Assembly: GCA_003971905.1 (NCBI GenBank)
Contig: RSEE01000010.1
Location: forward strand, 310,001 to 374,000
Reading direction: 5' to 3'
Origin: Moniliella sp. 'wahieum'
Lineage: Eukaryota > Basidiomycota > Moniliellomycetes > Moniliellales > Moniliellaceae
Length of the DNA: 64,000 bases
Made by a program: the position numbers and the translations under genes
Notes under the pieces: model-generated
The model's database searches: none
Seen by the model: the letters and a program-made list of their open reading frames with translations, nothing else
What the model was told of the DNA's origin: nothing
Part shown: positions 5,279-58,597 of the stretch, in pieces
Position numbering within the stretch: the first letter of the stretch is position 1
How the letters are laid out: each line of letters starts with the position of its first letter

Positions 5279-5306
5279 GATGCATGATGCATCGTACTTG
5301 ATGCAT
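5279..5306 (+). repeat. Heptad palindrome run GATGCAT
   Basis: Two abutting GATGCAT units (5279-5292) and a third at 5300-5306. The unit is G plus the palindrome ATGCAT. The run lies about 225 bp upstream of the OPT start. Confidence 0.8.
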
Positions 5307-6198
5307 GATACTGAGCAACTGAGGTACGGAGTCGGAGTGCTAACTAGTGAGTACGAGGTACTGAGTTGGGCCCTGTTGCGCCCGCTTACCCCGCGCTGCC
5401 ATCAGTAGTCCCGGTATTCAGCCGATTGGCTCGGTACGCCCAGCTCGCGTGGGTCGCATCACCCGCACGGCGTCTGTGTATGTGCACCATATGGCCGAAG
5501 GCTTCTGATTCTGGAATATCCTGTGTTGCGGCGTGGTGCATTGCTGGGCATGGCGCCGGTGTCACCAAGCGATGGTGTATCTCAACAACCACCCATCCTC
5601 ACACTGCTCTGCTGGTGCCCTCACCGCTTCCCCTGGCTGGCTGGTCTAGCCCGACGAAAATCACAGGGTCCACGTCACCGTGTCACCGTGGTCACCGTAG
5701 CGAGTCACAGGGGGTCGTCACGCTGCTGTCACGAGTGAGCGGCACGAAGGCAGTATGTGGCACTCAGAAGGGGCGCCACATGGTCTTCCACTTCGCCCCA
5801 TTTGTCCGTTTCCACCCCGTGCTCCCGCGCGCGGGGCACACCAGAGCACACCAGGGCATGGCACACCGCTGGCACATCGGGGCGAGCAGGTGCCCCAGAC
5901 CATTTTGCCGAGGCCAGCAACGGACGCTCGGCCAGGACAGTCCAGCGTAGATCCATCGTCTGCGGTGGCGCAGGTGCCGCCCTCGGCATCGCGGCTCACG
6001 CGCTCAGGCACCTCTCGTGGTTGCAGATGTTAACTTGTATGATGCAGACGGCGATTTTCATGTCGCCTATACGCTAGGCATGCAAGATCATATTCACATT
6101 GCATCCTATGGTTCCATCGCAAAAGTAAACTCAAACCCTCCACTGGAAGGTTGCTCTGGCGTGCTGTGGCGTGCTCTGGGGCCATCCTTCCCGTCTAC

Positions 6199-6240
6199 TG
6201 AGGCCCCTGAGGCCTGAGGCCGAGGCCTGAGGTCCTGAGG
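6199..6240 (+). repeat. Heptad palindrome run GAGGCCT
   Basis: Imperfect chain of units based on G plus the palindrome AGGCCT, including one perfect unit at 6209-6215 followed in register by GAGGCCG. The same motif recurs near 31015, 39000, 57780 and 57945. Confidence 0.7.
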
Positions 6241-6360
6241 GCTAGTTCTGACTTCTGACTAGTGACTAGGACTCTTGCGTTTCACGGTGCTCTCAGTGTT
6301 CGGTTGCCAAATTTCAAACTTTTTGCGGGGAGCTTCACAAGCTTCACACTCCTTAGATGT

Positions 6361-6388
6361 GACATGTGACATGCGAAGCTTGAAGCGT
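6361..6388 (+). repeat. Mixed heptad run with four units in one register
   Basis: Four abutting 7-bp units in unbroken register: GACATGT (6361-6367), GACATGC (6368-6374), GAAGCTT (6375-6381) and GAAGCGT (6382-6388). Two different palindromic hexamers share one 7-bp frame, so simple expansion of one unit does not explain the run. Confidence 0.85.
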
Positions 6389-6498
6389 GAATTATAAATG
6401 GGGTTTTAAACCAATAGCGGTGCTTGAAAAGCCCCACTCGAATTGGGCTAGTCCTGGCCTGTCTTGGCCTGTCCTGGCTGTAGTCGTGGAGTGGCAGT

Positions 6499-6519
6499 GA
6501 CATGTGACATGTGACATGT
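6499..6519 (+). repeat. Heptad palindrome run GACATGT x3
   Basis: Three perfect abutting units of G plus the palindrome ACATGT, in the OPT/MAPR divergent spacer. Confidence 0.9.
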
Positions 6520-8733
6520 TTTGTCATGTATTCCCACAGTGCTGCTAGATGTGTCCGGGAGCACTTTTGTTGTAGTAGACACATGTCTGGTGTACACACA
6601 TGCCAACACACATCTCATCTACCCAAAATGGTCCTATACCTGCCCCACCATTTTGCATGATGCATGAAGAAACTTGAAGCCTTGAAGCTGAAGCCTGGCA
6701 GCTCTCCGTCTTGGTGGATTGCATCCATTCTCTCTCTCTCCCCATAGTGTGTACCTGAGCAATGGGCAATGGGCCCGCGTGGAACCGCGTATATATATAA
6801 GCAGCGTGTTTTTGCCCCACTTTTTCAGCCATGTGTCTGGCTACTGTGGTGTGCGTATCTCTGTCTCCATACTGCAACCATATTTATTGACAGAGAGCTT
6901 AAGGCTGGGACAAAGAAACGCTTCGCCTAAACCGAGCCGTTCATCCGGCGTGTGTTGCTTAGTTGTTAGCTGTTAGCGCCAACCCCGTTTAAGGAACCAG
7001 GGAAATCGCCCACAGGAGATCGGGACCCTCCCATGCCCGTCATCCGTTCCCATACCGAGAGGTAGCGCATGTGGGTACGGATGAACGTGTTAGACACATC
7101 CAAGCGGTAAATTATCTTCATTGAGACCCTCTTAATTCCTTCCAGTACCAAGCATCTTCCCTGCTGGCTTGGTGGCATAGTATCCTCGCGTCGTCAAAAC
7201 CAAAGGGGAAAAGAGTGTTCTTCAGTGCGTCCTTTGGACTTGGCGTTCTTGTCCGCTCTCCTTGTTCCATCAGCCCAAGCAGCTCCTTCTCCTGGTGTTC
7301 CAAAGGCGTCGCAGTGATCTCTTGTCACTAGTCACTACCACCTTCCGGGTGGCAACCAGCGCCTCCTGTTTTCCCGCGGCGCGCAGCGTGTGTATAAAAG
7401 AGAGCATGATATGCATGACCTACTTGTTTAGGCTTACCACCAAGCGCAGTCCAGCGAACCAGTCTACCGTATTGGCGATACCAGCAGGACCGATGGCCGA
7501 TGCAAACCGTAACTGTGGTGGCGCACCAAGACCGGTGGAACAGTGGTTACGGTGGTTCCAAAGTGTGCAGCGACAGGAGCACCCACTCTGCGCACCCAAC
7601 CGAGGCACCCAGACGGGGCGCCACCAAGAGGAAGGGGCCAGTCCTCAATCGACACTCCGTCTCCCTCTCTCCTTCTGATCCTCTGTGCGACACACCACAG
7701 CCATGTGTTTCCCTGTTACTGACTCCCGAAAACTGTGTACCATGCCACGGTGAATATCATGGAACGTTACCCTATGTTTTGCATGCTGGAGTGAAGGTTT
7801 TTGTGGACGATGGGACGGTAGACAGCGTTGAGGATGGGAAAAGAGCGCCTGCTATGGAAAGGTGGACCAGCGGAGAAGGAAGGCCGTGGACCGTCACCAT
7901 CAGCTAGAGATGACACAGGCTGGGACGGAGCCCGAGCAGACCGGGCCGTCCCCTCGTTATTGGTGATAAAATTAGGCCTCTCCCGCTTGGATCGATGGAC
8001 CGGTGGAACGGTGGAACGGTGGCGAAGGTGCCGAAGGTGGCGACGGTGGCCCAGCACCCAAACCGGGCCGTATTAGGCTCTCGGTGGCCTCCTAATAGTA
8101 ATGCGATGACATAGCTGGATGTATTACATCTGCTGCTTTGATATGACGCCTGGGGGGGCTCGATCAGGAGTAACACCCCATAAACTGCATCCGCCAGTGG
8201 CTGTTGGCTTTTGATGGCGAAAAAGGTGTCCTCTGGCGTGGAGCCACCAGTACTCTCTGTGGGCATATATATGTCTTTTTTCGTTAGTCGGGGATTTTAT
8301 CGATTAAGATCCGCCACAGGCACACGGACCAATGTTTCAAGAGACTATCAACGTGAGTGCCCCAGGTGGAGCCTGGTGGCGCACACCTTACTACCTTGGG
8401 AAAATGCAACATGTGTGCTCCCCCTGGCTTGGCATCAGACATGTGATGTTCCTCCCAGAGCCCTTCGTACGGAGTACGAATACTCGGTGCGCAGCAGCAA
8501 CGCAAATACGCATGGCGGAAGACAGTGCGGAATTGAAGCGCCGCTTTCCGCCCAGGGCTGTGATCGCGTTATCAAACCACGTGGCTCCTGCCTAGTCGGG
8601 GCCTCGTCTCGCCACATTGCCTGACCCATTCACCACTGACGGTCCTGCCCCGAATGGGTGACAGCCATGCTTTGACGCCTGGATCGGTCGGCCGGGGTGT
8701 CTGCAGAGCGACCACCACCCTGTTTTCTCCCTC

Positions 8734-9704: not shown

Positions 9705-10130
9705 AGCTCTTTCTCTTTCACTCTGGAAGTCGGGATGGGATGATGTCAATTTGGCTCCCCGCGTTGTAACCGCCGGGATATAGACTTTCCCCATCAAGAG
9801 TACCTGGTATGATTCATTGCCTACCAGATGGTCTGATTGATCAGCTTTATCCTTCTCTCCCTTAAAATTGGTGAATGCTTCTGAGTGTATTGGGACATCC
9901 CGCGCTTCCCTGGTGAGTCGGACACGCTTCGAGCCGTTTTCGTCAACAGACGGGCCATATTAGCGCATTGCTATAGCGCCCCTTCACAATATACACCGTC
10001 GTCGTACCATCCGCAATCAATGTTTGACGACCCAGAAAATAGCGCGGATGACAATGATGTTCCAGATGAGAAATGCAGTTGAAGGTGCAAGGTACAAGTC
10101 CAAAACAAGGGCAGAGGGCACTGGGATGAA
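9705..10130. other. Convergent spacer between MAPR and C1-THF synthase
   Basis: About 430 bp between two gene 3' ends. It presumably holds both 3' UTRs. I see no gene or repeat. Confidence 0.5.
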
Positions 10131-13100
10131 TTAGAACAATCCCTGTACTTCGCCGTTAGCATCGAGGTCAATGTCGTAGTACCCCGGGCGAGTAGAGAGA
10201 CCAGGCATGGTCTGCATGGTACCCACGAGAGGGTAGATGAATCCCGCTCCAGCGGCCAACTTGACAGATCGAATGGGGAGGGTGAATCCCTCGGGGCGTC
10301 CCTTGAGAGTAGGGTCGTGGCTGAGCGAGAGATGCGTCTTAGCCATGCAGATAGGAAGGTGAGCGAACCCCTGTTGAGTGTACGTCGCAATCTGTTGTTG
10401 GGCAAGGGGGCTCAACTCAATCCCCTTGGCGCCGTACATCTCCGTGGCGATGGTATTGATCTTGTCCTGGATCGAAGCTTGGTCGTCATAGAGGAATTTG
10501 AACGAAGATGGGCTCTGTTCTAGCTGGTTAATGACGGCCTGAGCCAGCTCGAGAGCACCCTTGCCCCCTTCTTCCCAATGGTTGCTTGGCACTGCTGCGT
10601 CCGCTCCCGCCTTTAACGCCTCCTCCTGCACAGCTTTGATTTCCTCCTCAGAGTCAGTGGCGAAGCGGTTGATGGCGACAATCACTTTGAGGCCAAATTT
10701 CTTGGCATTCTCAATATGTTTGGCCAAGTTGACGCAACCTTGACGGGTCATCTCAACGTTCTCTTTGGTATAGACATCATCCAAAGGCTTGCCCGGCTTG
10801 ACCTCGGGACCTCCCCCGTGGGTCTTGAGTGCCCTTACGGTGGCCACAATGATCACCGCATCTGGTACAAGACCTGACTCGCGGCACTTGATGTTGCAGA
10901 ACTTCTCCATGCCAATGTCGGCACCAAACCCAGCCTCGGTCACCACATACCCCACCTGATCCGGTGAGTCCCCTTTCTCCAATCCGGCGAGTTTAAGCGC
11001 GATCGCATCGGCAAGGATGGAGCTGTTACCATGTGCAATGTTGGCGAAAGGACCGGCATGAACAAAGACCGGGGTGCCTTCGATCGTTTGCATCAGGTTC
11101 GGCTTGATCGCATCTTTCATCAGCACACCGTCAGGGCGCCCCCACAACCAATGTCGTCCGCCGTGATGGGTTCACCAGACTTGGACGTGGCCACAACCAT
11201 CTTGCCTAGACGTTCGCGCATGTCCTTCAAGTCCCGGGACAGTGCGAGGACAGCCATGCACTCCGACGCAACCGCAATATCAAACCCGGTCTCCCGAGTA
11301 AGCCCCTTCTCCGTTGGAGCCTTACCCACCGTGATCTGACGAAGATAACGGTCGTTCGTATCGACGACTCGGTGCCAGGTGATGGTTGAAGGGTCGATAT
11401 CGAGACGGGCAAAGCGAACGCGCTCCTCGGGGGTGAGGTCTTCGGGATCGGTCTTGTCAATGCCCAGTTTCTGAAGACGCTTCAGCATCACGGGGGCGAA
11501 GGAGCGCTTGCCATGCTTCTTAGGCACCAGGCGGTCGTAGAGAGCTCCATCCTTTTGCGTTGCCTCGTGGAACATGCGAGCATCAATAGCGGCAGCCAGA
11601 AGGTTGTTGGCAGCCGTGACAGCGTGGTTGTCACCCGTAAGGTGGAGGTTAAACTATGTAGCCAAGGTCAATATTCCAGCGGGAAAGGAATGGGCAAGCA
11701 ACGTACCTCCTCCATCGGGATAACCTGAGCAAATCCGCCACCGGCAGCGCCGCCTTTAATGCCGAACGTGGGGCCTTGGGAAGGTTGACGGACGCATGCG
11801 AACGCCGGCTTGCCCAAGTGAGCCCCCAGGGCTTGAACCAGACCGATAGTAGTAGTCGACTTGCCCTCTCCCAAGGGGGTGGGGGTGATTCCAGCAACGA
11901 CAATATACTTGCCATTGGAACGATGCTTGAGACGGTCGAGAATGTCAAGGGAAACCTTAGCCTTGATCTCCCCATACGGTTCGAGCTCCTCGGTGAGGAT
12001 CCCAACCTCATTGGCGATTTCAGCGATTGGACGGGGAATCTGGCTACGAGCCACCTCAATATCCGACGGAACCGGGTGGATCAACTTGATGGGGTTGGGC
12101 CTAGCCACGCCACGGCCGTTGTAGTGACCCTGTTCAAGACGACGCTGGGCGCCAATCAGCACATTCTCCATCAGGCAGGCAATCGTCATGGGCCCGACGC
12201 CTCCTGGCACGGGAGTGATCGCTCCAGCGACCTTGGAGGCCGAGGCAAAGTCAACGTCACCAACCAGACGGCGCCCACTCTTCTTGCTGGCGTCGGGAAC
12301 GTAGTTGATACCAACGTCAATCACGATCGCGCCAGGCTTGATCCAGTCGCCCTTGACAAACTCGGGTTTCCCCAAGGCTGCGATGACAATGTCGGCATTC
12401 CGAACGTGGGATGGCAGGTCTTTGGTCCTACTGTGGACTTGTGTGACAGTACAATTCTTGGAGCGCAGTAGACTCGACACAGGATTGCCCACAATGTCCG
12501 ACCGGCCAATCACAGTGGCTGTCAGACCGCTTAGGTCGTCCAAGCCAGCTTGCTTGAGGAGCTTCATGCACCCGGCCGGAGTGCAGGGCTGGAACAGTGG
12601 GTTGGCGGCCTTGGAACTGAGATGGCCAATGTTCAGAGCATGGAACCCGTCGACATCTTTTGTGGGAGAAACTTCCTCCGTCACCCTCCGCTCGGCATCT
12701 GCATCGATGTGGTCCCCAAGCGGAAGCTGAACCAATACGCCATGGACAGACGAATCCTGGTTGAGGAGGCGCACTTGCCGCCGAATCTCCTCCTCGGAAG
12801 CACCCTCAGGGAGCTGAACGTGCGTAGATTTGATTCCACATTCCTCAGCAGCCTTCATCTTGCCGCGAATGTATGTACTGCTGGCACTCTGCGAGCCAAC
12901 TTGGACAATGCAGACGGCAGGACGGAAAGCAGGGACGTCGGCTTGGATGTTCTGGATGGTTTGCTTGACCTGTTCGCGCGTCTTTTTGGCGAGTTCGGTG
13001 CCACTGATAAGGGATGCTCCTCCCTGGGACGTCAACGGTGCAGAAGCAGAAGTAGACGCTGCGTAGGCCCGCGCCGAAACACACACTGCCGTTCCCATAG

Positions 13101-13239
13101 CACCTAGGGCCGAGGGCGCTAGGCGGTGGCGGGCGGCCGAGACCAACAGCGGAGGCGCTCGACGCAAGCCACGCACGGCAAACTGTGCACGCAGTACAGC
13201 GCCAGCTGAACCAGATGCTCTGAAAGAGGGGCGAAGCAT
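10131..13239 (-). CDS. ADE3/MIS1: C1-tetrahydrofolate synthase, mitochondrial type
   Basis: Trifunctional folate enzyme: 5,10-methylene-THF dehydrogenase and methenyl-THF cyclohydrolase in the N-terminal half, ATP-dependent formate-THF ligase in the C-terminal half. The ATG at 13237-13239 begins an Arg/Ser/Ala-rich presequence of about 60 residues, which suggests mitochondrial import. Dehydrogenase/cyclohydrolase signatures are [32 protein letters not shown] and [11 protein letters not shown]. Ligase signatures are [19 protein letters not shown] and [14 protein letters not shown]. One 53-nt intron (11654-11706, GTACGT donor, TAG acceptor) lies inside the ligase half, after PMEE. A frameshift sits at about 11124-11129 in a GTGTG stretch inside the conserved [10 protein letters not shown] / [13 protein letters not shown] region. 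Repaired length is about 1018 residues, normal for the family. Cytosolic versus mitochondrial location rests only on the presequence. Confidence 0.92.
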
Positions 13240-14174
13240 GCCGCACGTGGTGGAAAAGAAAGTGGCGATGGTGGTATTCGCTTGGGATTTGGTGAGTCGA
13301 GCGGACCAACACGGACTTTTGTGGTGTTGGAAAAAAAACCTTGCGGTCGTGACTGACACATTGCATGCGGAGCGCCTGCCCTGTGCTGCCGGATCCATGA
13401 TCATCGCATCGATCAAGTCCGTGCTCGCAATGGTGTAGGGTTATGGCAATCTATATCTAAGTGCATGGCAATGATATCATTTCCGAAGAGCGAGATGGCA
13501 GTGCTACACCAACCACCCTTGCCCTACCCTCTTGCGCCTGCAGTCGTTTGTAGCGGGTTTCGCACCACTTGTAGCTGGTAGTACCTTCAGCAGTTCTGTA
13601 CGCCCGGCGCCTTGTCCTGGTGCCCAAAAATCAGCTTAATCGGAGTGTGTGAACGACGGGGATGAGCAAAGAGGAAACATATGCGCAGTGGACGGCAGTA
13701 AATTTTTGAAAGGTGAGATCTGAGAGGGCAAGCATTTGCGGCCGTGTGTAGTATGCACCCGTTTCAAGAATCGTTTTCTTGAGGACATATGGGTCCATCT
13801 GCTGAATGGAATGCGCCAACTATACAAGCTTGGATCTCGCACAAATTATTGTATGGTGGAAAGCCCACAGACACCAGTGCTCCCATATGGCACGACTAGA
13901 GTGTTGTGTGCCCATCAGGTTTTGTCACAGAATTGAACTCACTACCTGACGAGCGCTGAGGACAACACGGAACAGCACTCTGTAGTAAATCCGGTAAAAG
14001 CTGTAGATGAAACCGTTGCGAGCGCGTGAGAGGTCAGCCTGATGTCGCATAATGACCTCACCCCGCTCGAGAGACACTCCATAACACCGGCAACGGATAT
14101 GAAGTTGGCTTGAATGGACCGGATATGACTCTGACTCAGTCTTCCCCCGCTTGGAGACAAGAAAAACGTGACGA
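13240..14174. other. Upstream region of C1-THF synthase
   Basis: About 930 bp between the C1-THF synthase start and the left end of the transposon. Frames are short and overlap; I see no gene. Confidence 0.45.
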
Positions 14175-14196
14175 CATAGCTAATCGAAATTTCTAG
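14175..14196 (+). repeat. Left terminal inverted repeat of the element
   Basis: 22 bases that are the perfect reverse complement of 19488-19509. Confidence 0.88.
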
Positions 14197-14432
14197 TCAC
14201 AACGTTGCCGCCGATCTCGCCTCAAGGTGAGAAATTGATACCGTGAGTCTATGATTAGAAGTGCCACAACCCTGTACAAGAAAAGCTTGCGCAAGATGGT
14301 CGCCAAGGTCGAGACAATCTATACCCGACAGCTTGGCCCCAGGTTACCCCCACCTATCCCCACCTATCCCCGGACAGTCCGCAGCCTTGCTGGCAGGCTG
14401 GTGGCAAGGCTAGCCACAGATATTTTCACTAG

Positions 14433-14497
14433 GCTGGCGGCTAGGGTGGTGGCTAGGGTGGTGGCTAGGGTGGTGGCTAGGGTGATGGCTAGGGTGC
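14433..14497 (+). repeat. 12-bp minisatellite near the left transposon end
   Basis: About five tandem copies of GGTGGCTAGGGT, slightly varied in the first (GCGGCTAGGGT) and last (GATGGCTAGGGT) units. Subterminal repeat arrays are common in CACTA-like elements and can serve as transposase binding sites. That role is inference here. Confidence 0.75.
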
Positions 14498-15629
14498 CAC
14501 GATGCTATCAGATCAGGCAGTGGATTATCTTTAAAAGCATGCATTGCCATGGTTGTTTAGACACAGAGACGTAGAGGAGCGCCAAGGCAACGGCAGGTTG
14601 TTCGAGGAGCCTCGGGACGGCGGCAACCACAGAAGCTTTGCCTTCGTCGTTTAATCGCGGACCAAAAACATCATGGGGACGCCGAGATGATAGGGATAGA
14701 AGGGCAAAGAACAAGAGCCATACAACTTGCGGCGTGGGGGCGAAGCGTCGTCGCGTTCGAGAGGGAGAATGAGTCCCGCAACCATACGGCGAACGATGAT
14801 CTGTGTGCAAGCCAGCACATGTTCTGTGGTCGTTTCCTCAACACTTGAGCGCCTTCTCCAATCATCCTGCTTAAAGGCGTTGTCAGTATATGGGCGGATA
14901 AGGACAAAGCGCAGGTACTGACCTGGCCGGGGAAACCGTCGCCGTCGACCGTCCGCTCGAAGCGCCCCCGTCGTTGATCTTCAACTCGCCTGCGGGAGGT
15001 ATGACCGGCATCTTGGCGCAAAGGATATCAGGGATCGCCAGGCGTTGCCGACTCGGTTCCGGTGGCTGCGCGTAGGTCAGTCAGTACGACAGGCATCCGC
15101 CCGGAGGGCGTGGACATACCGAGGCCAGGCGCTAGCACAGTAGCGCGTCGGCGGGGGGGCATATAATGGCAGCGCAACGAGCCGGACACATGTCACCAGC
15201 TCCGGTAGCACAGTGTGGCCAGCGAGAGAGGGGCGGTGGCGGTGGTGGTGGTAGTTGAGAGGCAAGAGCATCGGCGCAGCTGCGTGCGGTTATAGGCGCA
15301 ACCCCCGGTGGTCCACCGGCGGTCCACCCGCATGGCGCCAGTGTTGCCCCCGCACGCCACCGCCAGCTCAAGGCGCCCACCTGCAGCCTGGGCGTTTAGT
15401 ATATATATAGAGTTTTTTAAGCTACGCACTTGAGATAGTCGTGACGCGTGACAGCAGCTATATACAGCACTATACTCCAGTCCAACCGTCTCGTTGCGAG
15501 AGAAGACACATTCGCACAAGTCGCGGGCAAGAGCGAAGGGAAATTGCCTCTTTACTCGCTCAACAAAACTAAAAGGCAATCGAGAAGGTGTGCCCGCCTC
15601 GTGTGCATCGAGCAGATTGTATCAGGAGA

Positions 15630-18600: not shown

Positions 18601-19030
18601 AACCTTGTGCTCCCTGTGCTTTGGGTCAAGGTCGCTTTGGCTCGCATCATGCCTATCGACTCGGCATATGACATGCGAGGCCTGGAGCTACCGCGCGTCC
18701 GCCCGACGCATGACTTACATTCCGGCTTCGCAGATCCACACCATCTTTGGCCCGCTTAACGTCCAGCACAATTGCGTGAAGGCCAAAAAGTGCCGGGTTG
18801 TCCCCAACAGCATTACGGATACAACCACTGGCTTGACGTCCGATGGGCTCCAGCACAACTTGTCTGCGACGTCGGCGTACAGCGCTACTTGCTCAACCAC
18901 TTTTCAACTCTGTCTCTCTCCCCACACCGATATTCTGCGACTTGGGGACTTGGCTTTTGCCCAGGACTGGGCGGTCGAGGGTGAGAATGTCCCTTCTGCG
19001 ACGATGTATTGGAGGCAGTACAATCCGTAA
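15630..19030 (+). pseudogene. Plavaka-like transposase, decayed
   Basis: Transposase remnant scattered over several frames with stops and apparent short introns. Motifs in order: MIKGDNVAANEMCFHMDMTA followed by a Cys-rich CCRFCDC (about 16615-16700), matching the family pattern GDN-x-x-x-x-E-x-x-x-H then C-R-x-C; DVMHTVLLGPVK (about 17174-17210), like the D-x-x-H-x-x-L-L-G block; SVTGVDYKILCQTLPLVLPNL (17350-17415); RPKFHLQSHL (17753-17785), the PKFHxLxHL block; LLWGPLKN with VIFTNRKK (17795-17895); and LNVQHNC (18755-18775) near the C terminus. KDZ transposases are an alternative, but their signature blocks are absent. It lies wholly between the inverted repeats. The start is not identifiable. 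Confidence 0.65.
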
Positions 19031-19487
19031 TGAACCTTTAGATCCTTCCCGAATGGCCACTAATGATGGTAGTCACCACTGTTGATGTATACTCTACACC
19101 ATCAGTCTATCAGTTTTTAACGATTTGGCTGAAAGCGGACACAGCACGTGTGGCTGTCCAAAGATTGCCAAATTGCTGCGGGAGTCTTAGGCTCCAATGG
19201 TGCAACGGCCAATTCCTACTGTTGGCTGGAGAAACCTCAGGTTCAATTCGTGGGTGGGCCATCTTTTTAAGATGGCTCGAGGCTGGCCGCCGTTCACAAT
19301 ATTGTGATTAGAATAGCGGGCAAGGTTGTGACGAACTTTATAGGCAGCAATCTAGGGACAACCTCGCTGGGCGGCCTTGCCGCAGTGTGGTCCAAGAGGT
19401 TGGGGCTAGCTGTGTTGGCGAGGCTGTGACAAGGTTGTGCCCCTCAAATCTAAAGACAAGCTGTGGTGTGGCCGGCAAGGTTCTGGG

Positions 19488-19509
19488 CTAGAAATTTCGA
19501 TTAGCTATG
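19488..19509 (-). repeat. Right terminal inverted repeat of the element
   Basis: 22 bases, the perfect reverse complement of 14175-14196. They are preceded by a GGCAAGGTT subterminal motif at about 19474. Confidence 0.88.
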
Positions 19510-19921
19510 GAGATTCATGCTGTGAGAGGTGAAGAGAAGGGCAGATGTATACCGAGAGGACGAGGGACGATGCAGGGCTTTGGGTTAATCTGGGTTCGAG
19601 CCTTGTTTGCAGCATTAGTTGGGCATTGGCACTGGTAGTCATCGGTTTTTGCTTACATTGAGAACCAGACTTCAAGGAGTGGCATTTCCTTTCGTCCGAC
19701 CTGGAGAACCGACATGTGAAACCCTTACTAGTAGTACTTAGTCCACAGTGAGTATCAGATGCTGACCGCTTTCTACTGGAAGGTTACATAAACGCTCACG
19801 CTGAATGGCGTGTAGGAGATGCAGTATAATTACACAAAATGTCATGAAGAGTCCTTGGAGATTGGGAGCGGGAGGGGATGGAGAGTAAGGAAAAAAGGTT
19901 CATAGGAAAGAAGCGTAATAC
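19510..19921. other. Spacer between the transposon and VCX1
   Basis: About 410 bp. It is probably the 3' region of the VCX1 gene. I see nothing else. Confidence 0.45.
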
Positions 19922-21511: not shown

Positions 21512-22632
21512 CGGTGGTGGGCCACACGGAGGGGAGGGTGGGTGCGTAGATGTATGCGAGAGGCTACGCTAGTCGAGTGGTGGTGGTGGCGTTGGGCGCT
21601 TCGCCTGAGCCTAAGCTCTAAGATCTAAGGCCGGGCCGCGGCCTACCGCGGCGCAGCAGAGTGACGGCATGGAACCTGGCGCGTGCAAAATTGAAACTAT
21701 TCGTCCTGTCATTTAACAATTCACAGTTGCGCGCCGCCTGGGTCGTGTAACACTGCCGCACATCGTCACGCTTTCCAAGCGCAGGCCGTGAGCGTGGCGC
21801 CTCTCACCACGATGCATGATGGTACTTTGGCTTTACAAATACAATGGCTCGCCCCACTGGGAACATTTCCCATATCCATTCACCATATACTAGTGCAAGG
21901 GCAACAATAAAACCAAGAGATAAAACCAAGAGATGCTGTTCGTCCTGTACTAGGACGCACCGACATTGTGTCCGCTTTTGTCATGAAGCAAATCAAAATG
22001 TATACAAGGGCAGACTGTCAAAAAGAGTGGCTACTTGTATTATACCGCGCTTCAATTTCCTACGACTCTCCACATCACGCGACAGCCGCTGTGGCTCTGG
22101 GGGATTCCTCCAGAACAGTGTTCTATGCCATCGAATCTCTGATTCCATGACAGAAGGGCGTATCAGTGGATACGCGCCCCCCCCCCCCCCAACTGCCTCA
22201 GGCCTCAAGCTTCAAGTCACCGTCTCTCTCCTGCGATGTCCTGGTTCTATCTTTCCGCAAGAAGACCAGCAGCAACGTCCTAGTCGCATCATGCATCATG
22301 CACCACCCATCAGTTCAGACAACATGATGCATTGCATTTGCATGACAATATTTGTTTCTTCGTCCCACACACGGTACTATATTCGGCACGCAGCATCACA
22401 TGCCATTTTCGTTTGACGACTTTTGCGCGCGTTCAACTGGTCACCGTGACCGTGGCCTGCCAACATGTCAGCTACCAACCTGACCAACCCGGTCAACTGA
22501 CCTTTCCATGAACACCTTTTCTCTCCTCCGGCCTTGCATCAGTGCATCAGCTCGAGAGAGGGAAGCCGCGCCCTACCGGCTACCAGAGGAGCGTGCTGAG
22601 ACCTAGCCGACGCGTCGACGCGTGAACGCCTC

Positions 22633-22669: not shown

Positions 22670-22856
22670 GACACGTCCAACGTTGAACATCCCGTGAACT
22701 GCCATGCTATGATGAAAAGACCATGCTTGAGACGTTTTGGCTTGGTTTTGCTCCATGGGGTGGGTTGGCGTGGCTTTTGTTGACTGGGTGATCCTTCGAC
22801 TAAAGACTCGGCTGCATTAGCATTAGTGACCGGCTCTTGTGCATGTGAAAAGCCGT

Positions 22857-22873
22857 GACGCGTGACGCGTGAC
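22857..22873 (+). repeat. Heptad palindrome run GACGCGT
   Basis: Two perfect abutting GACGCGT units (22857-22870) followed by GAC. G plus the palindrome ACGCGT. Confidence 0.85.
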
Positions 22874-23704
22874 GGTGAGCTGGGCGGGTGCTTTTCATGG
22901 CTGGTTTGCGAGTTGCTTGCCATCAGACGCGTCCCAAAAGGATGGAGGATGCCAACCTCAGCTGGATACTTGTAGCACTGGCACTGAAGCTTGAAGCCTC
23001 ACTGGGGCCTGAGGGATCGATAAAGCTAGTCAGGTCGATCGGAACAAGGACAGGGACAAGAACATGAGACGGGTGTTGGGGCACGTCAAAAGACACCGCG
23101 GCGGCGAATCCAACACGTGTGGTCACCAGTGTCACGTGACGCGTTCGGGGGCAGGTGACAGTGACAGTGACATGTGATGTTGGTGTCACAGTGGGCCAGT
23201 GGCGGGCGCTGCGTTGGCAGGCGCTGCGCGTTGCTCCGCGGTGGATAGTGGGCAGCGGCGATGGCTGGCGCGGAGCGAACGGCGAGCACAGCCGCCAGGC
23301 AGCCCCTTGCAGCTTGCAGCCCTCGCGCCTGGCAGCCCTTTTGCGGCGAGAGAGGCGTGTGGCGGATTAGCTAAGAGCGCGTCCGCGTGGCTGGGCATTC
23401 AATTCCAGTTCCATCTGGCGCTTGCGCGGCGCAGCGCTGGCGTGGCCGCATGCTGAACGTTGAACGTCAACTACTGAACGTTCAAGTGCGTGCCGCACGC
23501 AGCGTTGAAGTTCAACTGGACGCGCAGCCAACAAGCCAGCACAAGCCCCGCCAGCGTCCGCTCGCCACACACGCCGCCGCCGACACCAGCAGACCGACAG
23601 CCACGCGGCAGCCCTTGGTGCCCTCGCCTCGCCCCCGCTCTCCGCCTCCTCTCCACCACCCCGTGCGCGAGTGCAAGCGCGGCCCGCGCACCGCTCGCAC
23701 ACCC

Positions 23705-28782: not shown

Positions 28783-29276
28783 ATGTGGAGCGATCGGTTT
28801 CCGCGTAGATCGTGCCCGGCGGCCCCCCGTCCCAGCCGGCAAGATAAGCCGCGTCACGCCTCCGGTGGAGAGCGGCGGGGGCGTGCCGGTCCCGAGCATG
28901 ACGTCACGCTATTACCTAATTAGTGAGGTCTGTGCACGCTGGCAACCCCTGGCAGCCCCCCCGCAGGCGGAATTGCGGGCGAACGCAATGGTTACCAGTT
29001 ACAGCTTCAATATTCAATTCAACATTCAACATTCAATCCGCTACGGCCTTCGGCCCCACAGATGCTCCGATTCAGACGACACTTCCTCCCCCATCCCACC
29101 GTCATCGTCATTGCAATTCATGCTCCCCGCTCCATGATGCACGATGCGCGCAAGTCGTCAGGAAGGGACGTGTAACGTGGATCTTTAAATAGCACCGTGC
29201 AATCGCGACGCGCGTGTGTGTGTATTATCGGGGAGAGGGACGGATCGTAGCCGCGAGGGATCGTCTCAGGCGCCAT

Positions 29277-29297
29277 GATCGATGATCGATGATCGGT
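29277..29297 (+). repeat. Heptad palindrome run GATCGAT
   Basis: GATCGAT at 29277-29283 and 29284-29290, then the variant GATCGGT at 29291-29297. G plus the palindrome ATCGAT. Confidence 0.85.
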
Positions 29298-29663: not shown

Positions 29664-30639
29664 TGTAATAGAAGGTGGAAGGGCGAGAGAGGAACTGGTA
29701 GTCGAGGAGACCAACGGTAAGAGACAGAATGGTTGACAAGGACCACAGCTAGTAAGCCTTAGACATTATGGCTGCTTATATACCGCAGAAGGAACCAGGC
29801 CCTAAGCGCCTCATGATAGGTATAGACAGAATGCGGGGCACTTCCCAGAAAGGTAAAGACTAATGCACAGCCCTTGCTTCCCAAGGTGCTGACGCTGCGC
29901 AGTCGGGCGCAGCAGGAAGGATTCTGACAAGACTGGACGCAATAGGCACAAAGCATCGTACCGCTGAGCCCATGCGACCACGGCGGGCCGCGGATGATAT
30001 CCGCAGCAAGGATAAGGGTGGCTCTTTCTCGCTAGTCTAACCGGACTGACGCATGTTGGGCTGCGATGTCTACGACATGCGGGGCTCAGCGTCCGGAGAT
30101 AACCCGAGCGCTCCGTAACATTCCCAGACAAGTATTGTGGGACCTCACTATAGGGTGGTGGCACCGGTGGCCAAAAGCGTGGTTCCCTTTTCGGGACATT
30201 CCTTCCAATATTACTTCCTGGAGAGGGCAGAAATATTGTCTAGTCTCTGTGGCTCGTGTGCAGTGCAATATACACCATCAAGACGCTCAACGTTCAACTG
30301 AACAGCTTGCTCTCTCCGGCCTTCTACAGGTATATAATGTGTGCGGGTCTTATTCATTTCCTGTACTGTAGGCCATATATGCGCCCTATTCATGCGGTCC
30401 GTTCAAGTCTACAAAAGCTCTGTTTTGGTTACCGCATAGGCGGCAACGTTTTGAAGCTTGAGTCCTTGAAGCTTGAAAAGAGAGTTGAACGTCGAGCCAC
30501 CGAACTTGCGTGTTTGGCCAAAAGGTCCCTTCAGCCCCGTCATCGACCTTGGCATCTCAGATCTCAGACCTCATCAGGCCTATGAGTTCCGGTTTTCTCG
30601 CTTCTGTCTTCCTGAATTGTCCTATAACCTCTATATAGA

Positions 30640-38074: not shown

Positions 38075-39723
38075 GGTGGATGGTTGGTGGTCTGCGAAAC
38101 GCGCACGCTTGAGATGGGGTGGTGGCAAGCGAGGAGTGCGGCGCCGTCTCTTTTGGGTCTTGTTGCGCATTGCGCCACAGCCGCAGCGCGATGCCCGCAC
38201 CGAAGCGAGCCATAAGCACCGCATTTGCCCTGTGGCAGGCGCAGTGCCCCGGCTGCCCCGCACCGCCGCATCCTCCTCCATCCGTGCGAGAGGCGGGGCG
38301 TCCGCAGCGGAGCAGTGTGGCTGTGGCCTCTCGTTGCCGCGTATCCGGCGACGCTTAGCCCCAGGAGTCCAGCGTCCATCGACCAGGATTGCATCTATGC
38401 GTCATGCGTCATGCATCATGGACCACAACTCAGTCGCCCGCAAAAGGTGTATATAAAGCACGCATCATGCGTGGGATCCAAGATCTAAGTCTCTGAGAGG
38501 CCTGCGTCGGGGATCCGGTGACCCACCATGCATCAGTGCATCACCCATGTCGCTGTGGGCGACGGTACCATCACCGTAACCCGTCACCAGCCTTACTGGA
38601 TAAACTACCAGAAGCCCATCCTAGTCGCGCACACCTCTGCAGGGGGCGAAGAGGAGGAAGGTGTGGCGTTTTGATGGCAGAACTGATGGATTAAGCGAAA
38701 CTTATTGTAGCACTGAGTACTGAATGAAAGTGGGGTAGTCTCAGCACAACTCTTCTTTTCATTCATCTCAATCCCCTCTCAATCTCAAGTGACGTTCAAC
38801 TGAGCGTTCAACAAGTTCAATGTTCAACTTGAACTCGCAACTACATCTCCCTCCGACAAACATACCGCATTGTTTGTCCATTTGTTTACGTCGGAGACCT
38901 TTCGCTTGAAACCTTCCACGTAGAAGAAGGACTACAAGGCATCGTGCTCCAGTAAAAGGTGACGAGGTGCCACAGTGATGACATGCCAGACATGTCAGGC
39001 CTCACAGTCTGAGGACCGAGCCTCAGGGCCTCAGGGCCTCAGACCTCAGTATGCTATGAAGCTTGAAGAGCATAGAAGAAGGGGATCGGAGAGATCCGAG
39101 TGTGGCTGACACGCTGAAGGGTGGAACGCGCCCATGTCACAGTGCCACTCAAAAAGCACTCTACTATCTCCGCTGTGCTGTCTACGCGAGAGACTGTGAC
39201 ATGTGGCATGTGAACTGTGAACTCACAGCGCGGGGGCGGAGCGCCTTTAAGCTCTAAGCTTCACGGCCGGGATGCCGTTGGGTCGGAACCAGGCACCAGC
39301 CGTTTTATGCGGCAGGCTGGGCAAACGGACAGATAATGTGCAACTGTCGATAATCGACTCGATAACGGCTGTGCGAGCATCGGCCATCGGGTGGTTGCAG
39401 TCCTTGGCGCGCCCCAAGCGAGGGTGGCGCGGGGAACGCGGGTAGAGGCCCGGCGACTGATAGATCAACATTGCAATTTTTTTGTCGGTTGCCAGCTGCT
39501 GGTCACGATTAACTTTGCTGCGGGGTGGGACGTTGGATGCTGGTCAAGACGGCCTGGACAGCGAGCCTGATATTGATACCTGTACTTACCCATCGACGGA
39601 TAATCCTATTCCAGATCCCAGCCAGCTGCTTCCCCACTCCAGTGTCTCTGCCACCGCCTCCGTAGCAACCACTCTGCCGCCTCGCGGCCCGTCGTGCCGA
39701 CGTGCTCTGGGTGCAGTCCGCCG
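38075..39723. other. 1.65 kb divergent spacer between syntaxin and the zinc-cluster gene
   Basis: Shared upstream region with heptad runs at 38397-38420, 38790-38835 and 38985-39060, and a TATATAA at about 38450. Frames are short. I support no gene. Confidence 0.5.
38397..38420 (-). repeat. Heptad run ATGCGTC/ATGCATC
   Basis: ATGCGTC at 38397-38403 and 38404-38410, then ATGCATC at 38411-38417 and ATG, all abutting. This is the C-type form of the G plus ATGCAT heptad. Confidence 0.85.
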
Positions 39724-46137: not shown

Positions 46138-46558
46138 AGTGGAAGCGACTCGAGGGTAGGGTAGGGTGGGGAGAGGAGGCGGTGAAGGCAGGGGGTGGGG
46201 GGCATGGCACGCGCACCGACGCGCGCAGACGAGGGGAGAGGGGGGGAGGAGGAGGAGGAAGAGGAGGAGAAAAAGGTGGCGGTGGTGGGATGGGAGGAGG
46301 AGGGGGAGGGGGTGGCGGGCCACCAACCAACTAATCCTGCGATACCTTACCGTCCTGGTCGGCTGGAGCGCCGACCCGACGGATGAAAAGAAATCATCGA
46401 TGGCTACATGACTCGTGAAGATGACTATCATCGATCACCGGTGCAGAGTGGGAAAAAACAGGTGTGGGGCCGGTAGTGCAAACTGTAAGCTGCAAATCAC
46501 CCGTGTCACCGGTGAACACCCGAATGGCCCAGAGGCAGAGGATAGCTCGTGTATAGTC

Positions 46559-46575
46559 ACCGGTCACCGGTCACC
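46559..46575 (-). repeat. Heptad run ACCGGTC
   Basis: Two abutting ACCGGTC units (46559-46565, 46566-46572) plus ACC. This is the C-type form of G plus the palindrome ACCGGT. Confidence 0.8.
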
Positions 46576-48266
46576 AGCCACCTGTCGCAAGTCATCGTAA
46601 CGGGGTAAGGCCGGTAACCGACCGGTATAGCCGACAAGCGGCAACCACGTGAGCTGCCCAAGCGCCAACGCTGCCCACAGAAACTGGCTTTTTGTCCGCC
46701 GATATTGGCGGACCTGCAGGTGGGCAGGCGCGGTGTTTGCGTCCTGAGGCCTCGCTTCCTGCCTCGTCCCAAGGCCTTAACCGCTGCCCATCTGAACGTG
46801 AGGTTGAACGTTGGTTGAGGCCCGTGGTGCTGAGGGAGGCCAGCGCGTTATTGCAAGACTAATAAGAGGCAAGACGCCTGTGATTTGATGTGATTAATGA
46901 TTCTGCCGGCGCTGAACGCGTGAACGCACTGAACGTGCGACGTACGAACGTACGTTGAATGTCCCCCGATTGTGATCGATGTGATCTCCCCGTGGGGGTA
47001 CCCGGGCCAACAGGAGGGGCACAGGACCAGCGGGAGGGAGGCACCGTGCCACCACTGCCTCAAACTTTCCCAGCTTCAACGTCTTCAACAGGTTCCAACG
47101 CCTCCAAAGTTCGACCCAACCGCGGCTGCGAGTCACTGTGGAGAAAATGTGGGGGAGCTTTTAGGGCAGAGGGCGAGGGCAGGGGTGAGTGCATGCGAGG
47201 ACATACGGCATACCGGCCATACCAGACACCCGATATGTCAGTGAGATCTGAATCTCAGATCCCATTCCAATGCACCGGCTAATAGGAATCACCTTCTAGT
47301 AAGTTTTGGTACAGTGTGGGTGGCGTGGTGTGGGCTACGCGCTACACGTTATTAGTAAAAACACTTTCGTATCAAAACATGTTATTTTGCCCCGGCTCAC
47401 AGGCTCAGTGCTCGCTCAGTGCTGGATCCATCAGCTGCCGACGGCGTCTGCTCTCGTGCTCCCGGTCGGCTCTGCTTAAGAAATCAACCGTACTGACCGT
47501 TACGCGTTATAGACCCCACGCCCTTCCGGATCCCACTGTAGCCACTTGCCTGCCACTCCTCAGGCGAAAGACCTAAGACCTTGCAGCGCTAATGGGCCTA
47601 ACGCCGGTCGACGTTCCCAAGCGGGCTGTGGCGAGGGAGCACTCGTCGTCACGCGTCAGCGCTCAGCTGGCATATAACTTCTTGCTGGTTACTGTCGCAG
47701 TTTCTGCCGGGGCGCTGCAAGAGGCAAGAGGCAACCGGTAAGTGCCAAGAGCCAAGAGCTAAGATCGAAGAGACGGTCTCCTGCCTTCTCCAGCGCACAA
47801 GCCACTGTGTTGGGCGTGCGTATACGTAGGCTGCTCGGCCGCTGCCTGCTTTGCTGGTTGGTGGATACAGGCGCAGGGCGCAGGGCCCACAACGCTGCAT
47901 GTGGGGGCCGGGGGATCACACAATACATCACACGTTCCACATCACGCGTAACATATAACACCCTACTGGGGCCTTTGCAGCATTGCGTTCAAGCTGAAAC
48001 GTAAAACTGTGCATACCATCAGTGTGATGCGACGCTACACGGCCCTCCCCCTCGTCCTCCGTATCAGTCTACCCGTCTCTCCTCCGATCGCAGAGGGCAG
48101 GCCTTCTGCCTGATCCGCATGGCCCAATCCCCCAGCCACACGAGAAGCACATTACGTGGCACGTCCATCCCTTCCCTGGCGTTAAGCTTAGCTTCATTAG
48201 CTTCATTTCCCTCCCGTTTGCCCATCTGCATCACCGGGGGAAAGGCCGGTTACTATTACTAGCTTT

Positions 48267-48295
48267 ACTAGTCACGGTCACTAGTCACTGGTCAC
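48267..48295 (-). repeat. Heptad run ACTAGTC/ACTGGTC
   Basis: ACTAGTC (48267-48273), a 6-nt variant, ACTAGTC (48280-48286), then ACTGGTC (48287-48293). C-type units on the palindrome ACTAGT. The same heptad occurs near 6255 and 7325. Confidence 0.75.
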
Positions 48296-57138: not shown

Positions 57139-57849
57139 ATGGTGTGAGTGGGGCAGGGGGCGCAGCGGCGGCGTGCTGGCGTCGAAGCGTATCGGGTATC
57201 CGGGGGAGGTGAGTGCTGATGCGTTGAGCGTGGGCGTGACGGCGTGGGGGTCTCCACCGCAGGGTTAGGAGGATCCGCCCGCGCGCCACATCGGTGCATC
57301 CCGCAGGCAATCATAATCAGCCGGCGCAGCACATCGGAATGCAGCCACGCAGACTCCGCCTCCTCCTGTCCAGGCCAGCCGACCGTACCATCGAGCTGAC
57401 CCTCTGATGTCATCGACCGCAGCAACCCAATTCCGCCCGGTACACTGAGCCAGCTTGATGAATTGATTGTTCGCCGCCGATGCATGATGCACTGACGCGT
57501 GATTAATGATTGACGATTCGAGTAGCCAGCGAGTGATCTGTCGCGCTAGTCACGTGCTTCTGGCCCCTGATCCTGTGCATGCGACGTGTGGCGGCAGGAG
57601 GCGGGACTGCTTCAAGTTTCAGGCTCAGGGAGCTTCAGGTGCAAACGGAATGTGAGTGTGACAAAAGTGACACTGGTTTATCACCTGACATGCTGACGCG
57701 GGACATGTGAAACTAGCAGAGACGTGACGCGCGTGACGCGTGATGGAGTTTGAAAAGTGAAATTTGAGGAGGTCGGAGTCCTGCATAGTCCTGAGGCCCG
57801 GAGGTCTGAGGGAGGCCTGAGGCCGGATGCAAACGTCCTCCTCCTTTAC

Positions 57850-58029
57850 AACAACGCCTACAGAGAGCATCAAGCAGCCAGTCGCCCCCAGGAGCTAGGT
57901 TGTGGAACAAAGAAAACTGAAGCGAAAAAGCAACGGAACTCCTAGGCCTGAGGCCTGAGAGGGACTGAAGCTTGAAGCTTGAAGGAAGGGACGTATCTAG
58001 TTGGCCAAAACATACGGTGGCTCAGCAGG
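57850..58029 (+). repeat. Dispersed repeat family, copy D (diverged)
   Basis: It starts at the ACAACGCCTACAGAG block and continues with CATCAAGCAGC, GTCGCC, GGAACAAAGAAAA, ACGGAACTCCTAGGCCTGAG, GGGAC and TTGGCCAAAACATACGGTGG, ending at GGCTCAGCAG. It has lost the 5' part present in copies B and C. A GAAGCTT heptad pair (57967-57980) interrupts it. Confidence 0.75.
57967..57980 (+). repeat. Heptad palindrome run GAAGCTT
   Basis: Two perfect abutting GAAGCTT units followed by GAAGGAA, located inside repeat copy D. Copies B and C lack them, so the heptads were probably gained after the repeat inserted. Confidence 0.8.
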
Positions 58030-58580
58030 GTTAGCGCGTGACGGGTGGGTGCGTGATATGGTGCTCTGACGGTCACGCCCTTCACATGTGATGCTTGCGC
58101 AGCGACAGACACTGTTTGGCAGTTGGTGACTACTGTGACTAGGCGGCAGGTGACAAGGTGACTAGGTGACCGGCGTCTTCGTGACATGTGACATGTGACA
58201 GGTTTTGGTCCGGTGACGCGGTGACGCGACGTGTGACATGTGACGAGCGAATGGCTAGGGTGTCGAATTAAGAATTGGGCCTTGGGGCCGCTGGCTGGGT
58301 TGGGGCTGGGCCGAGCAGCGCAACTTGCTACGGCGCTGCACAGCACAGACACCGGGCGAGCGTCCACCAGCCGTCGGGGGGGCTGCGACCTCGGGGCCTA
58401 GCTGGCCTCGCAGGGCGTCGCAGCACCCGCACCAGTACCCAGTGTGAATTGCTAGGTGGCTACCGGTATAGCTTCGAGCAGTACATCCCGCTTCCCGTAT
58501 CCACTGTGGCCTACTGCTGCGCACTTGCTCACCCACTGACGCATGATCGATGATCCCGCAGTTCAGTAGACGGGCGCATC

Positions 58581-58597
58581 ATGCATCATGCATCATG
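58581..58597 (-). repeat. Heptad run ATGCATC
   Basis: ATGCATC at 58581-58587 and 58588-58594, followed by ATG and a further ATCATGCGTC. C-type form of G plus ATGCAT. Confidence 0.8.

What the first reader, a model, noticed from the sequence alone, without database searches (positions are those of the whole stretch)
5279..58597. A family of 7-bp repeats built from G plus any palindromic hexamer A-x-y-y'-x'-T
Spacers across the window carry short runs of heptads of one general form: G followed by a self-complementary hexamer starting with A and ending with T. I count at least ten: GAACGTT, GAAGCTT, GAGGCCT, GACATGT, GACGCGT, GATGCAT, GACCGGT, GACTAGT, GATCGAT, GAATATT. Runs of two or three units occur at, for example, 5279, 6499, 22857, 29277, 38397, 46559, 57967 and 58581. 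Since only the form (not the sequence) is constant, expansion of one microsatellite cannot explain them. The form suggests a structure-guided process, such as slippage or templated repair at small hairpins, or a protein that reads TGA-N4-TGA spacing. I did not notice any run inside an annotated exon, and most lie in long upstream spacers. I know of no description of this as one class.
Basis: seen in the sequence. Interest (0 to 1): 0.75.

Follow-up and report, generated by a model that had tools for sequence, protein, structure and literature searches.

The report
Self-complementary 7-bp repeats filling fungal promoters
In this fungus the DNA upstream of genes is peppered with short 7-letter repeats that differ in sequence but obey one self-pairing rule (T-N-A followed by two letters and then their mirror complement), which points to an unusual process, still unidentified, that writes small insertions into promoters.

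Summary
In 264 kb of this 69.5-Mb fungal assembly (nearest named proteins: Exobasidiomycetes), 101 of 192 exact period-7 runs of 14 nt or more are self-complementary, all with hexamer A....T (one order-4 Markov copy: 1 of 24). TGA-N4-TGA has a palindromic N4 in 249 of 415 cases (6% expected), and all 16 palindromes occur. Genome-wide, TGAAGCTTGAAG occurs 5,288 times; the same letters with a non-complementary filler, 21 times. The building block is a 5-nt direct repeat T-N-A-x-y around 2 nt complementary to its own end (y'x'): 59 of 72 runs of exactly 12 nt have precisely these borders. By a crude gene model the arrays avoid coding DNA, lie upstream of genes (divergent 2.2/kb, tandem 1.3/kb, convergent 0-0.4/kb) and show no strand bias. 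Between haplotypes they differ as often as their flanks, often by about one 7-bp unit, so nothing suggests that they are conserved sites. Best explanation (about 0.4): snap-back templating. A 3' end at y'x'TNA copies two of its own bases and then resumes on the original template, adding 7 bp. Why only T-N-A is unexplained. Ten literature searches gave no description of this class.

The parts
5276..5292 (+). TNA-palindromic heptad run, unit GATGCAT
   Evidence: exact period-7 run, 17 nt
6206..6221 (+). run, unit GAGGCCT
   Evidence: 16 nt
6256..6269 (+). run, unit GACTAGT
   Evidence: 14 nt
6357..6373 (+). run, unit GACATGT, followed by 12-nt run GAAGCTTGAAGC at 6375-6386
   Evidence: 17 nt and 12 nt
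6497..6519 (+). run, unit GACATGT, three units
   Evidence: 23 nt
6654..6667 (+). run, unit GATGCAT
   Evidence: 14 nt
7324..7337 (-). run, unit GACTAGT on the minus strand
   Evidence: 14 nt
13714..13725 (+). exact 12-mer block TGAGA-TC-TGAGA
   Evidence: 12 nt, block borders as defined in the report
15440..15452 (+). run, unit GACGCGT
   Evidence: 13 nt; the only listed TNA run inside the 5.3-kb multicopy element at 14174-19509
22195..22216 (-). two overlapping runs, units GAGGCCT and GAAGCTT (minus strand)
   Evidence: 13 and 12 nt
22286..22302 (-). run, unit GATGCAT (minus strand)
   Evidence: 17 nt
22854..22874 (+). run, unit GACGCGT, three units
   Evidence: 21 nt
23454..23467 (+). run, unit GAACGTT
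   Evidence: 14 nt
29275..29295 (+). run, unit GATCGAT, three units
   Evidence: 21 nt
30287..30298 (-). 12-mer block, unit GAACGTT (minus strand)
30554..30568 (-). run, unit GAGATCT (minus strand)
   Evidence: 15 nt
38409..38420 (-). 12-mer block, unit GATGCAT (minus strand), next to the non-palindromic run cited at 38397
39057..39068 (+). 12-mer block TGAAG-CT-TGAAG
   Evidence: this exact word occurs 5,288 times in the assembly
46556..46575 (-). run, unit GACCGGT (minus strand)
   Evidence: 20 nt
47647..47667 (-). two overlapping blocks with different palindromes (CGCG, GCGC)
   Evidence: 12 + 12 nt
57479..57511 (+). neighbouring runs with different palindromes: GATGCAT, then TGA-CGCG-TGA-TTAA-TGA
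   Evidence: mixed array
57730..57743 (+). run, unit GACGCGT
   Evidence: 14 nt
57944..57984 (+). two runs, units GAGGCCT and GAAGCTT
   Evidence: 16 and 19 nt
58181..58244 (+). two runs, unit GACATGT
   Evidence: 20 and 13 nt
58543..58648 (.). runs, units GATCGAT (plus) and GATGCAT (minus strand, 58576-58598 and 58635-58648)
   Evidence: 13, 23 and 14 nt
61700..62203 (.). four further 12-13-nt runs (TTACCGG, GACATGT, CAAATTT, GACATGT types)

Best explanation
The arrays are the accumulated product of a structure-templated small-insertion process acting on intergenic, mainly promoter-side, DNA. Proposed steps: (1) a growing or broken 3' end stops after ...y'x'TNA; (2) its last 5 nt leave the template and fold, and the polymerase copies the strand's own y'x', adding x and y, so that a 7-nt mini-hairpin y'x'(TNA)xy forms; it cannot copy further because the next base is still paired; (3) synthesis resumes on the original template five bases back. 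The product is y'x'TNA-xy-y'x'TNA (or its complement TNAxy-y'x'-TNAxy): +7 bp, with a 5-nt direct repeat around 2 complementary nt, for any x and y. Repetition lengthens the array; ordinary slippage between units then changes copy number. Shown: the rule, the block borders, the genome-wide excess, the placement (crude gene model), copy-number differences between haplotypes. Inferred: the snap-back, the direction (gain) and the cause of promoter preference. Not explained: why only T-N-A serves as pivot.
For: Complementarity of two free positions with two others requires base pairing somewhere: 340 of 445 two-base fillers between identical TNAxy copies are y'x' (28 expected); all 16 palindromes occur; 5,288 TGAAGCTTGAAG against 21 TGAAGTCTGAAG. 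Borders of the block: 59 of 72 runs of exactly 12 nt start at T and end at y on one strand, which plain 7-bp tandem duplication (at least 14 nt) does not give. No consensus outside the 12 nt, x and y near uniform (59 sites). Only N4 works: TNA-N4-TNA 562 of 976 palindromic, N2 52 of 226 (56 expected), N6 14 of 506 (8 expected). Haplotype pairs show a single 5-mer against the block, read by eye: CTTCA / CTTCA-AG-CTTCA, GATGA / GATGA-TC-GATGA and GGTGG / GGTGA-CC-GGTGA (net 7 nt; the last with substitutions), AGTGA / AGTGA-CT-AGTGA (net 8), TGAAC / TGAAC-GT-TGAAC and TGAGT / TGAGT-AC-TGAGT (net 6). Mixed arrays with different palindromes side by side: 6 of 19 non-identical neighbours of a palindrome, about 1.2 expected. 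Arrays differ between haplotypes as often as flank windows (45 of 84 and 46 of 83 against 1493 of 2611 and 1445 of 2668), so nothing holds them constant. Upstream placement without strand bias would fit DNA opening at promoters.
Against: Snap-back alone predicts that A-N-T, C-N-G and G-N-C pivots should work too; they do not (AGTAGCTAGTAG 68 genome-wide). A one-base loop closed by T.A is strained (general knowledge). Haplotype differences are unpolarised: the same pairs could be losses, and half of the six single-5-mer examples are not exactly 7 nt. Extra classes with 3-4-nt fillers (133 and 155 cases, many containing y'x') need further steps. As many one-unit differences (six by eye, one of them with a substitution, two with further length changes nearby) have a full y'x'TNAxy heptamer in the shorter haplotype, which plain duplication or deletion explains. 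The arrays are not more variable than their flanks, so no excess mutability is shown today. The polymerase and the initiating lesion are not known.
Confidence: 0.4

Rival explanations
1. Repair scars of a site-specific staggered cut: an enzyme (a transposase, domesticated or not) cuts at TNAxy with a 5-nt stagger; the flank ends close as hairpins and are opened two bases off, so the repaired site reads TNAxy (copy), y'x' (palindromic P nucleotides), TNAxy (copy).
For: The 5+2+5 block is what a 5-bp target duplication plus two P nucleotides would look like; the duplicated N is the same on both sides (GG/CC 249 of 415, AA/TT 32 of 73; mixed N at most 26 of 88); fillers of 3 and 4 nt are raised too, also relative to 5-mers without T-N-A (133 and 155 against 1753 and 2647, while gap 0 is 22 against 1366); T-N-A would be the cut-site specificity, which snap-back does not explain.
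Against: P nucleotides should vary in length, but only two is strongly enriched (one: 37 of 98 against 24.5 expected; three: 5 of 133 against 2.1). The palindromic filler belongs to the xy side (340 of 445) and hardly to the T-N side (37 of 445, 28 expected). No element with inverted ends (exact seeds of 7 or 9 nt) and a TNANN duplication was found in 264 kb. Tens of thousands of scars without resident elements would be unprecedented as far as I know.
Confidence: 0.2
2. Selected cis-regulatory elements: a family of dimeric DNA-binding proteins, or a DNA structure, uses T-N-A flanked by self-complementary bases in promoters.
For: Dyad symmetry, promoter-side placement (divergent 62 in 28.5 kb, tandem 56 in 42.4 kb, convergent 0 in 21.4 kb with one parameter set), no strand bias (29/27).
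Against: A protein cannot easily require complementarity of arbitrary bases; one family would need all 16 xy specificities; no extended consensus; arrays are no better conserved between haplotypes than flanks (45 of 84 and 46 of 83 differ, flanks 57% and 54%); same-xy clustering is mainly within about 60 bp rather than promoter-wide.
Confidence: 0.15
3. Ordinary microsatellite slippage in which hairpin-forming units expand best.
For: Copy-number differences between haplotypes are common, and 7-bp indels are slightly raised (5, 6, 7, 8, 9 bp: 13, 16, 19, 6, 5).
Against: Palindromic hexamers starting with C, G or T, many of them more stable, do not form such repeats (0 pairs at 7 bp); other periods show no comparable palindrome excess; the modal exact run is 12 nt, shorter than two units.
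Confidence: 0.08
4. Excision footprints of many DNA transposon families with 3-bp TNA target duplications (PHIS/NuwaII-like), each leaving two terminal bases from both inverted ends (xy...y'x').
For: NuwaII elements duplicate TNA and occur in fungi (PMC4482050, passages); the same N on both sides fits a duplication.
Against: Would need families with all 16 terminal dinucleotides at near-equal frequency and a target already followed by the same xy; NuwaII sites prefer C|TNA|G, here x is free. The only inverted-end pairs flanked by identical TNA triplets were 4 (8-nt seeds) and 1 (10-nt seeds), all in L012 and L021 at places that themselves hold heptad arrays; none with 12-nt seeds.
Confidence: 0.05

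Closest known systems
Quasipalindrome-associated (intrastrand) template-switch mutation
   Same: A strand uses itself as template for a few bases and returns, creating perfect short inverted complementarity (PMC7202029, passages; PMC8794818, abstract and opening).
   Different: Known events perfect an existing imperfect inverted repeat or create hairpin stems; here the result is a 7-bp direct repeat, always around T-N-A, with a two-base copied tract, at an estimated tens of thousands of places.
P nucleotides in V(D)J joining and hAT/Transib-type excision scars (recalled, from no call)
   Same: Short palindromic addition next to a duplicated or flanking end.
   Different: Here almost only two bases, on the xy side, with no resident elements found in 264 kb.
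PHIS/NuwaII transposon target sites (C|TNA|G)
   Same: TNA duplication, present in fungi (passages of PMC4482050).
   Different: No such elements found in 264 kb; x is any base; the filler is complementary to the flank.
Bacterial and viral-contig heptad repeats holding TGAAGCT
   Same: Period 7, GAAGCTT runs.

Membership tests
Intrastrand template-switch (quasipalindrome) mutation | New bases are complementary to bases a few nt away on the same strand | tested here: met
   340 of 445 fillers y'x'; 5,288 against 21 genome-wide; that they are new is inferred
Intrastrand template-switch (quasipalindrome) mutation | A pre-existing imperfect inverted repeat is made more perfect | tested here: inconclusive
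   Shorter haplotypes carry either a single 5-mer or a full heptamer (by eye); direction unknown
Intrastrand template-switch (quasipalindrome) mutation | No fixed sequence requirement at the pivot | tested here: not met
   T-N-A only
Excision scar with P nucleotides | Target duplication of fixed length on both sides | tested here: met
   59 of 72 exact 12-nt runs are 5+2+5
Excision scar with P nucleotides | Variable P length, on either side | tested here: not met
   nearly only two, nearly only on the xy side
Excision scar with P nucleotides | Resident elements with the same target duplication | tested here: not met
   none in 264 kb with exact 7- or 9-nt seeds; whole genome not scanned
PHIS/NuwaII transposon footprint | TNA duplication and inverted ends | tested here: not met
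   no convincing TNA-flanked inverted-end element in 264 kb
PHIS/NuwaII transposon footprint | A PHIS transposase in the genome | not tested
   no search made
Microsatellite by slippage | Copy-number variation by whole units | tested here: met
   haplotype pairs
Microsatellite by slippage | Unit sequence matters only through length and stability | tested here: not met
   A....T only
Transcription-factor binding site | Fixed base preferences | tested here: not met
   x and y free but complementary
Transcription-factor binding site | Conservation above flanks | tested here: not met
   45 of 84 and 46 of 83 arrays differ, flanks 57% and 54%; only two haplotypes of one strain

The most novel reading that the evidence does not exclude
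This fungal lineage has an enzyme system that recognises T-N-A in open promoter DNA and writes 7-bp insertions by duplicating five bases and adding the reverse complement of the last two. It would be a sequence-triggered, structure-templated mutator that remodels promoters and has produced tens of thousands of self-complementary blocks.
Probability: 0.25. Interest if true: 0.92.

Novelty: new variant of a known kind. Interest (0 to 1): 0.78.

Why it matters
A repeat class defined by a pairing rule and not by a sequence escapes repeat finders that look for one consensus. It is a clean, high-count record of a small-insertion process in a eukaryote. Each block names its own template, so strains of this fungus would make the mechanism of templated micro-insertion directly testable, and would show whether promoters gain length and dyad symmetry by mutation alone.

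Tried and rejected
Transposons with TNA (3 bp) or TNANN (5 bp) duplications and inverted ends: nothing convincing in 264 kb. A TF-type extended consensus: none. Pure tandem duplication of heptamers: the exact runs peak at 12-13 nt, below two units. A cross-domain rule: GAAGCTT arrays exist in bacteria and viral contigs, but other palindromes are not enriched there. GACATGT arrays in viral contigs: no exact match to a 27-nt pattern. A second copy of window 6100-7000 or 10001-22000: none found, only repeats and paralogues. De novo birth inside a young SINE-like family: not done, the copies could not be fetched. RNA-level function: no strand bias, not pursued. Literature: ten searches gave no description of this class; I saw the listings with the start of each abstract, plus the abstract and opening of PMC8794818 and passages of PMC7202029, PMC4482050 and PMC7954356.

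Corrected on rechecking: a first count (78 of 105 arrays differ between haplotypes, 858 of 1477 flank windows) took arrays found in either haplotype, which favours differing ones. Taken from one haplotype at a time the excess vanishes, so I claim only that the arrays are not conserved better than flanks. Fillers of 1, 4 and 7 nt are also common between identical 5-mers without T-N-A, as a three-base coding period would give, so the raised count at 1 nt says little.

Weak points: the coding model is a hexamer score trained on 67 long ORFs, and its window test forbids stops, so TGA-rich arrays are disfavoured on one strand; 83 of the 222 runs lie at stretch ends and fall in no spacer class. L021 was chosen because it held GAACGTT runs; it is left out of the 19-stretch counts but is in the 264-kb counts. 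That the second copies are the other haplotype is inferred from collinearity and 91-96% identity. In pair p3 the part without homology was dropped (13 and 1 arrays). The haplotype examples were picked and read by eye.
Full report
What was checked. The window lies in an unnamed 69.5-Mb assembly of 223 contigs. It is fungal (Fungal_trans and, just below its cut-off, Zn_clus). A cation-exchanger protein is 77% identical to an unnamed metagenome protein, 63% to Tilletiaria anomala and 51-57% to Sympodiomycopsis, Ceraceosorus and Tilletia, so an Exobasidiomycete is likely (listing). I used the window, 19 stretches of 10 kb at round positions, and one stretch (L021) chosen because it held GAACGTT runs: 264 kb in all.

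The observation. In 264 kb there are 192 primitive exact period-7 runs of 14 nt or more; in 101 the unit is one base plus a palindromic hexamer, always A....T (92 with G or C as the single base, 9 with A or T). One fourth-order Markov copy had 24 runs, one palindromic. Other periods show no comparable excess. Among palindromic runs of 12 nt or more, 22 of 244 are not of the T-N-A kind. In the window alone 19 of 36 runs of 14 nt or more and 48 of 150 runs of 12 nt or more are T-N-A palindromic; 60 Markov copies each of order 2, 4 and 5 gave at most 2 and 6. The 19 round-number stretches give 57 of 123 and 134 of 491.

The rule. TGA-N4-TGA occurs 415 times on both strands (3.9 times expectation); 249 have a palindromic N4, against 5.9% over all triplet pairs; TAA-N4-TAA gives 32 of 73. 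The base between T and A is the same on both sides: TGA with TCA gives 26 of 88, TCA with TGA 24 of 130. Palindromic hexamers starting with C, G or T do not recur at 7 bp (0, 0, 0 pairs), while A....T hexamers do so 72 times and also at 14, 21 and 28 bp (22, 11, 8). N2, N6 and N8 between identical TNA triplets are near chance (52 of 226, 14 of 506, 2 of 290); N4 is palindromic in 562 of 976.

The block. Extension of the period beyond TGA-N4-TGA is most often by two bases on one side. Of 72 runs of exactly 12 nt, 59 read TNAxy-y'x'-TNAxy on one strand (which leaves out runs near stretch ends). Between two identical TNAxy copies the filler is two bases in 445 cases, 340 of them y'x' (28 expected); fillers of 0, 1, 3, 4, 5 and 6 bases number 22, 98, 133, 155, 40 and 50. 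For 5-mers without T-N-A the numbers for 0 to 6 are 1366, 3460, 3331, 1753, 2647, 1268, 1206, so gaps of 1 and 4 are partly a general feature, and those of 3 and 4 stay raised in proportion. In four-base fillers, y'x'y'x', y'x'xy and xyy'x' account for 46 of 155. No consensus exists outside the 12 nt; N is G 25, C 22, A 6, T 6; x and y are near uniform.

Genome-wide. TGAAGCTTGAAG has 2756 + 2532 matches, its letter-reversed control 1 + 2; TGAAGTCTGAAG, with the filler bases swapped, 9 + 12, control 1 + 3. AGTAGCTAGTAG, with the bracket A-N-T, has 42 + 26; its letter-reversed control happens to be a member of the class, GATGATCGATGA, and has 1440 + 1545. From the 19 stretches (134 runs in 190 kb) I estimate some 49,000 runs in the assembly, both haplotypes counted.

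Place. With a crude coding model, 19 of 222 runs lie in predicted coding sequence (59% of bases), against 237 of 491 other period-7 runs; two other thresholds give 40 and 8 of 222 at 73% and 46% of bases. Between predicted gene blocks, with one parameter set, divergent spacers hold 62 runs in 28.5 kb, tandem 56 in 42.4 kb, convergent none in 21.4 kb. Over four parameter sets and three data subsets the rates are 1.8-2.4, 1.0-1.3 and 0-0.42 per kb. In tandem spacers the purine centre is on the gene strand in 29 of 56. 83 of 222 runs lie at stretch ends, unclassed.

Two haplotypes. Several stretches have one main collinear second copy; the six alignments made show 91-96% identity. Over 32,442 aligned columns (94.5% identity) indels of 5, 6, 7, 8 and 9 bp number 13, 16, 19, 6 and 5. 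Arrays taken from one haplotype differ from the other in 45 of 84 and 46 of 83 cases; flank windows of the same length in 1493 of 2611 and 1445 of 2668. So the arrays vary like their surroundings. By eye, one-unit differences are of two kinds: a single 5-mer against the 12-nt block (p1 933, p4 1526, p5 2012, p6 573, p6 716, p6 2563; net 6, 7, 7, 6, 7, 8 nt) and one heptamer against two (p2 358, p2 4119, p2 5476, p4 769, p4 1295, p4 1685). p4 769 and p6 716 carry substitutions; p2 358 and p4 1685 have further length changes nearby. At p1 1626 one copy has TCAAC once and the other has it four times. Larger haplotype-specific insertions (36 and 53 bp) consist largely of such words.

Mechanism. 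Complementarity at free positions needs base pairing; lack of conservation argues against selection for each site; the 5+2+5 borders argue against plain duplication. A 3' end at y'x'TNA that copies its own y'x' and then resumes would give exactly this block (inference). T-N-A is left unexplained by that model and would be explained by a cutting enzyme, which in turn leaves the fixed length of two and the one-sidedness unexplained. I therefore give the snap-back 0.4 and the cut-and-hairpin scar 0.2.

Known relatives. Quasipalindrome template switching (PMC7202029, passages; PMC8794818, abstract and opening) is the nearest process. NuwaII transposons share TNA duplications (PMC4482050, passages). 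Bacteria and viral contigs carry a heptad family with GAAGCTT, without the general rule.

Noticed in passing
window 30691-30928, 1788-2021, 1-210 (inverted): SINE-like dispersed element of about 238 bp; 684 candidates, 40 scored; the copies other than the query and three partial hits are 91-97% identical.
   Followed up: partly
window 6869-7000: Dispersed repeat of about 130 bp with at least 39 further copies at 77-86%.
   Followed up: no
window 14174-19509: 5.3-kb multicopy element (copies up to 99% identical) with about 22-bp inverted ends starting CATAGCTAATCG; holds one listed heptad run.
   Followed up: partly
G000 C9/C18, C7/C40, C3/C61, C13/C30, C4/C16: The assembly holds collinear second copies of several regions, presumably both haplotypes; for the window parts tested (6100-7000, 10001-22000) none was found.
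   Followed up: partly
L064 and up (genome contigs), L044-L063 (viral contigs): Heptad repeats with a GCTTG-like core plus variable bases (for example L050, L082) in Pseudomonas, other bacteria and viral contigs; a possible parallel class.
   Followed up: partly
L039 about 5251-5286 against L021 about 5497; L024 about 1703-1755 against L008: Haplotype-specific insertions of 36 and 53 bp made largely of T-N-A words with short spacers.
   Followed up: no
window 43573-43602: Long non-palindromic period-7 run (TGTACTG)n, 30 nt.
   Followed up: no
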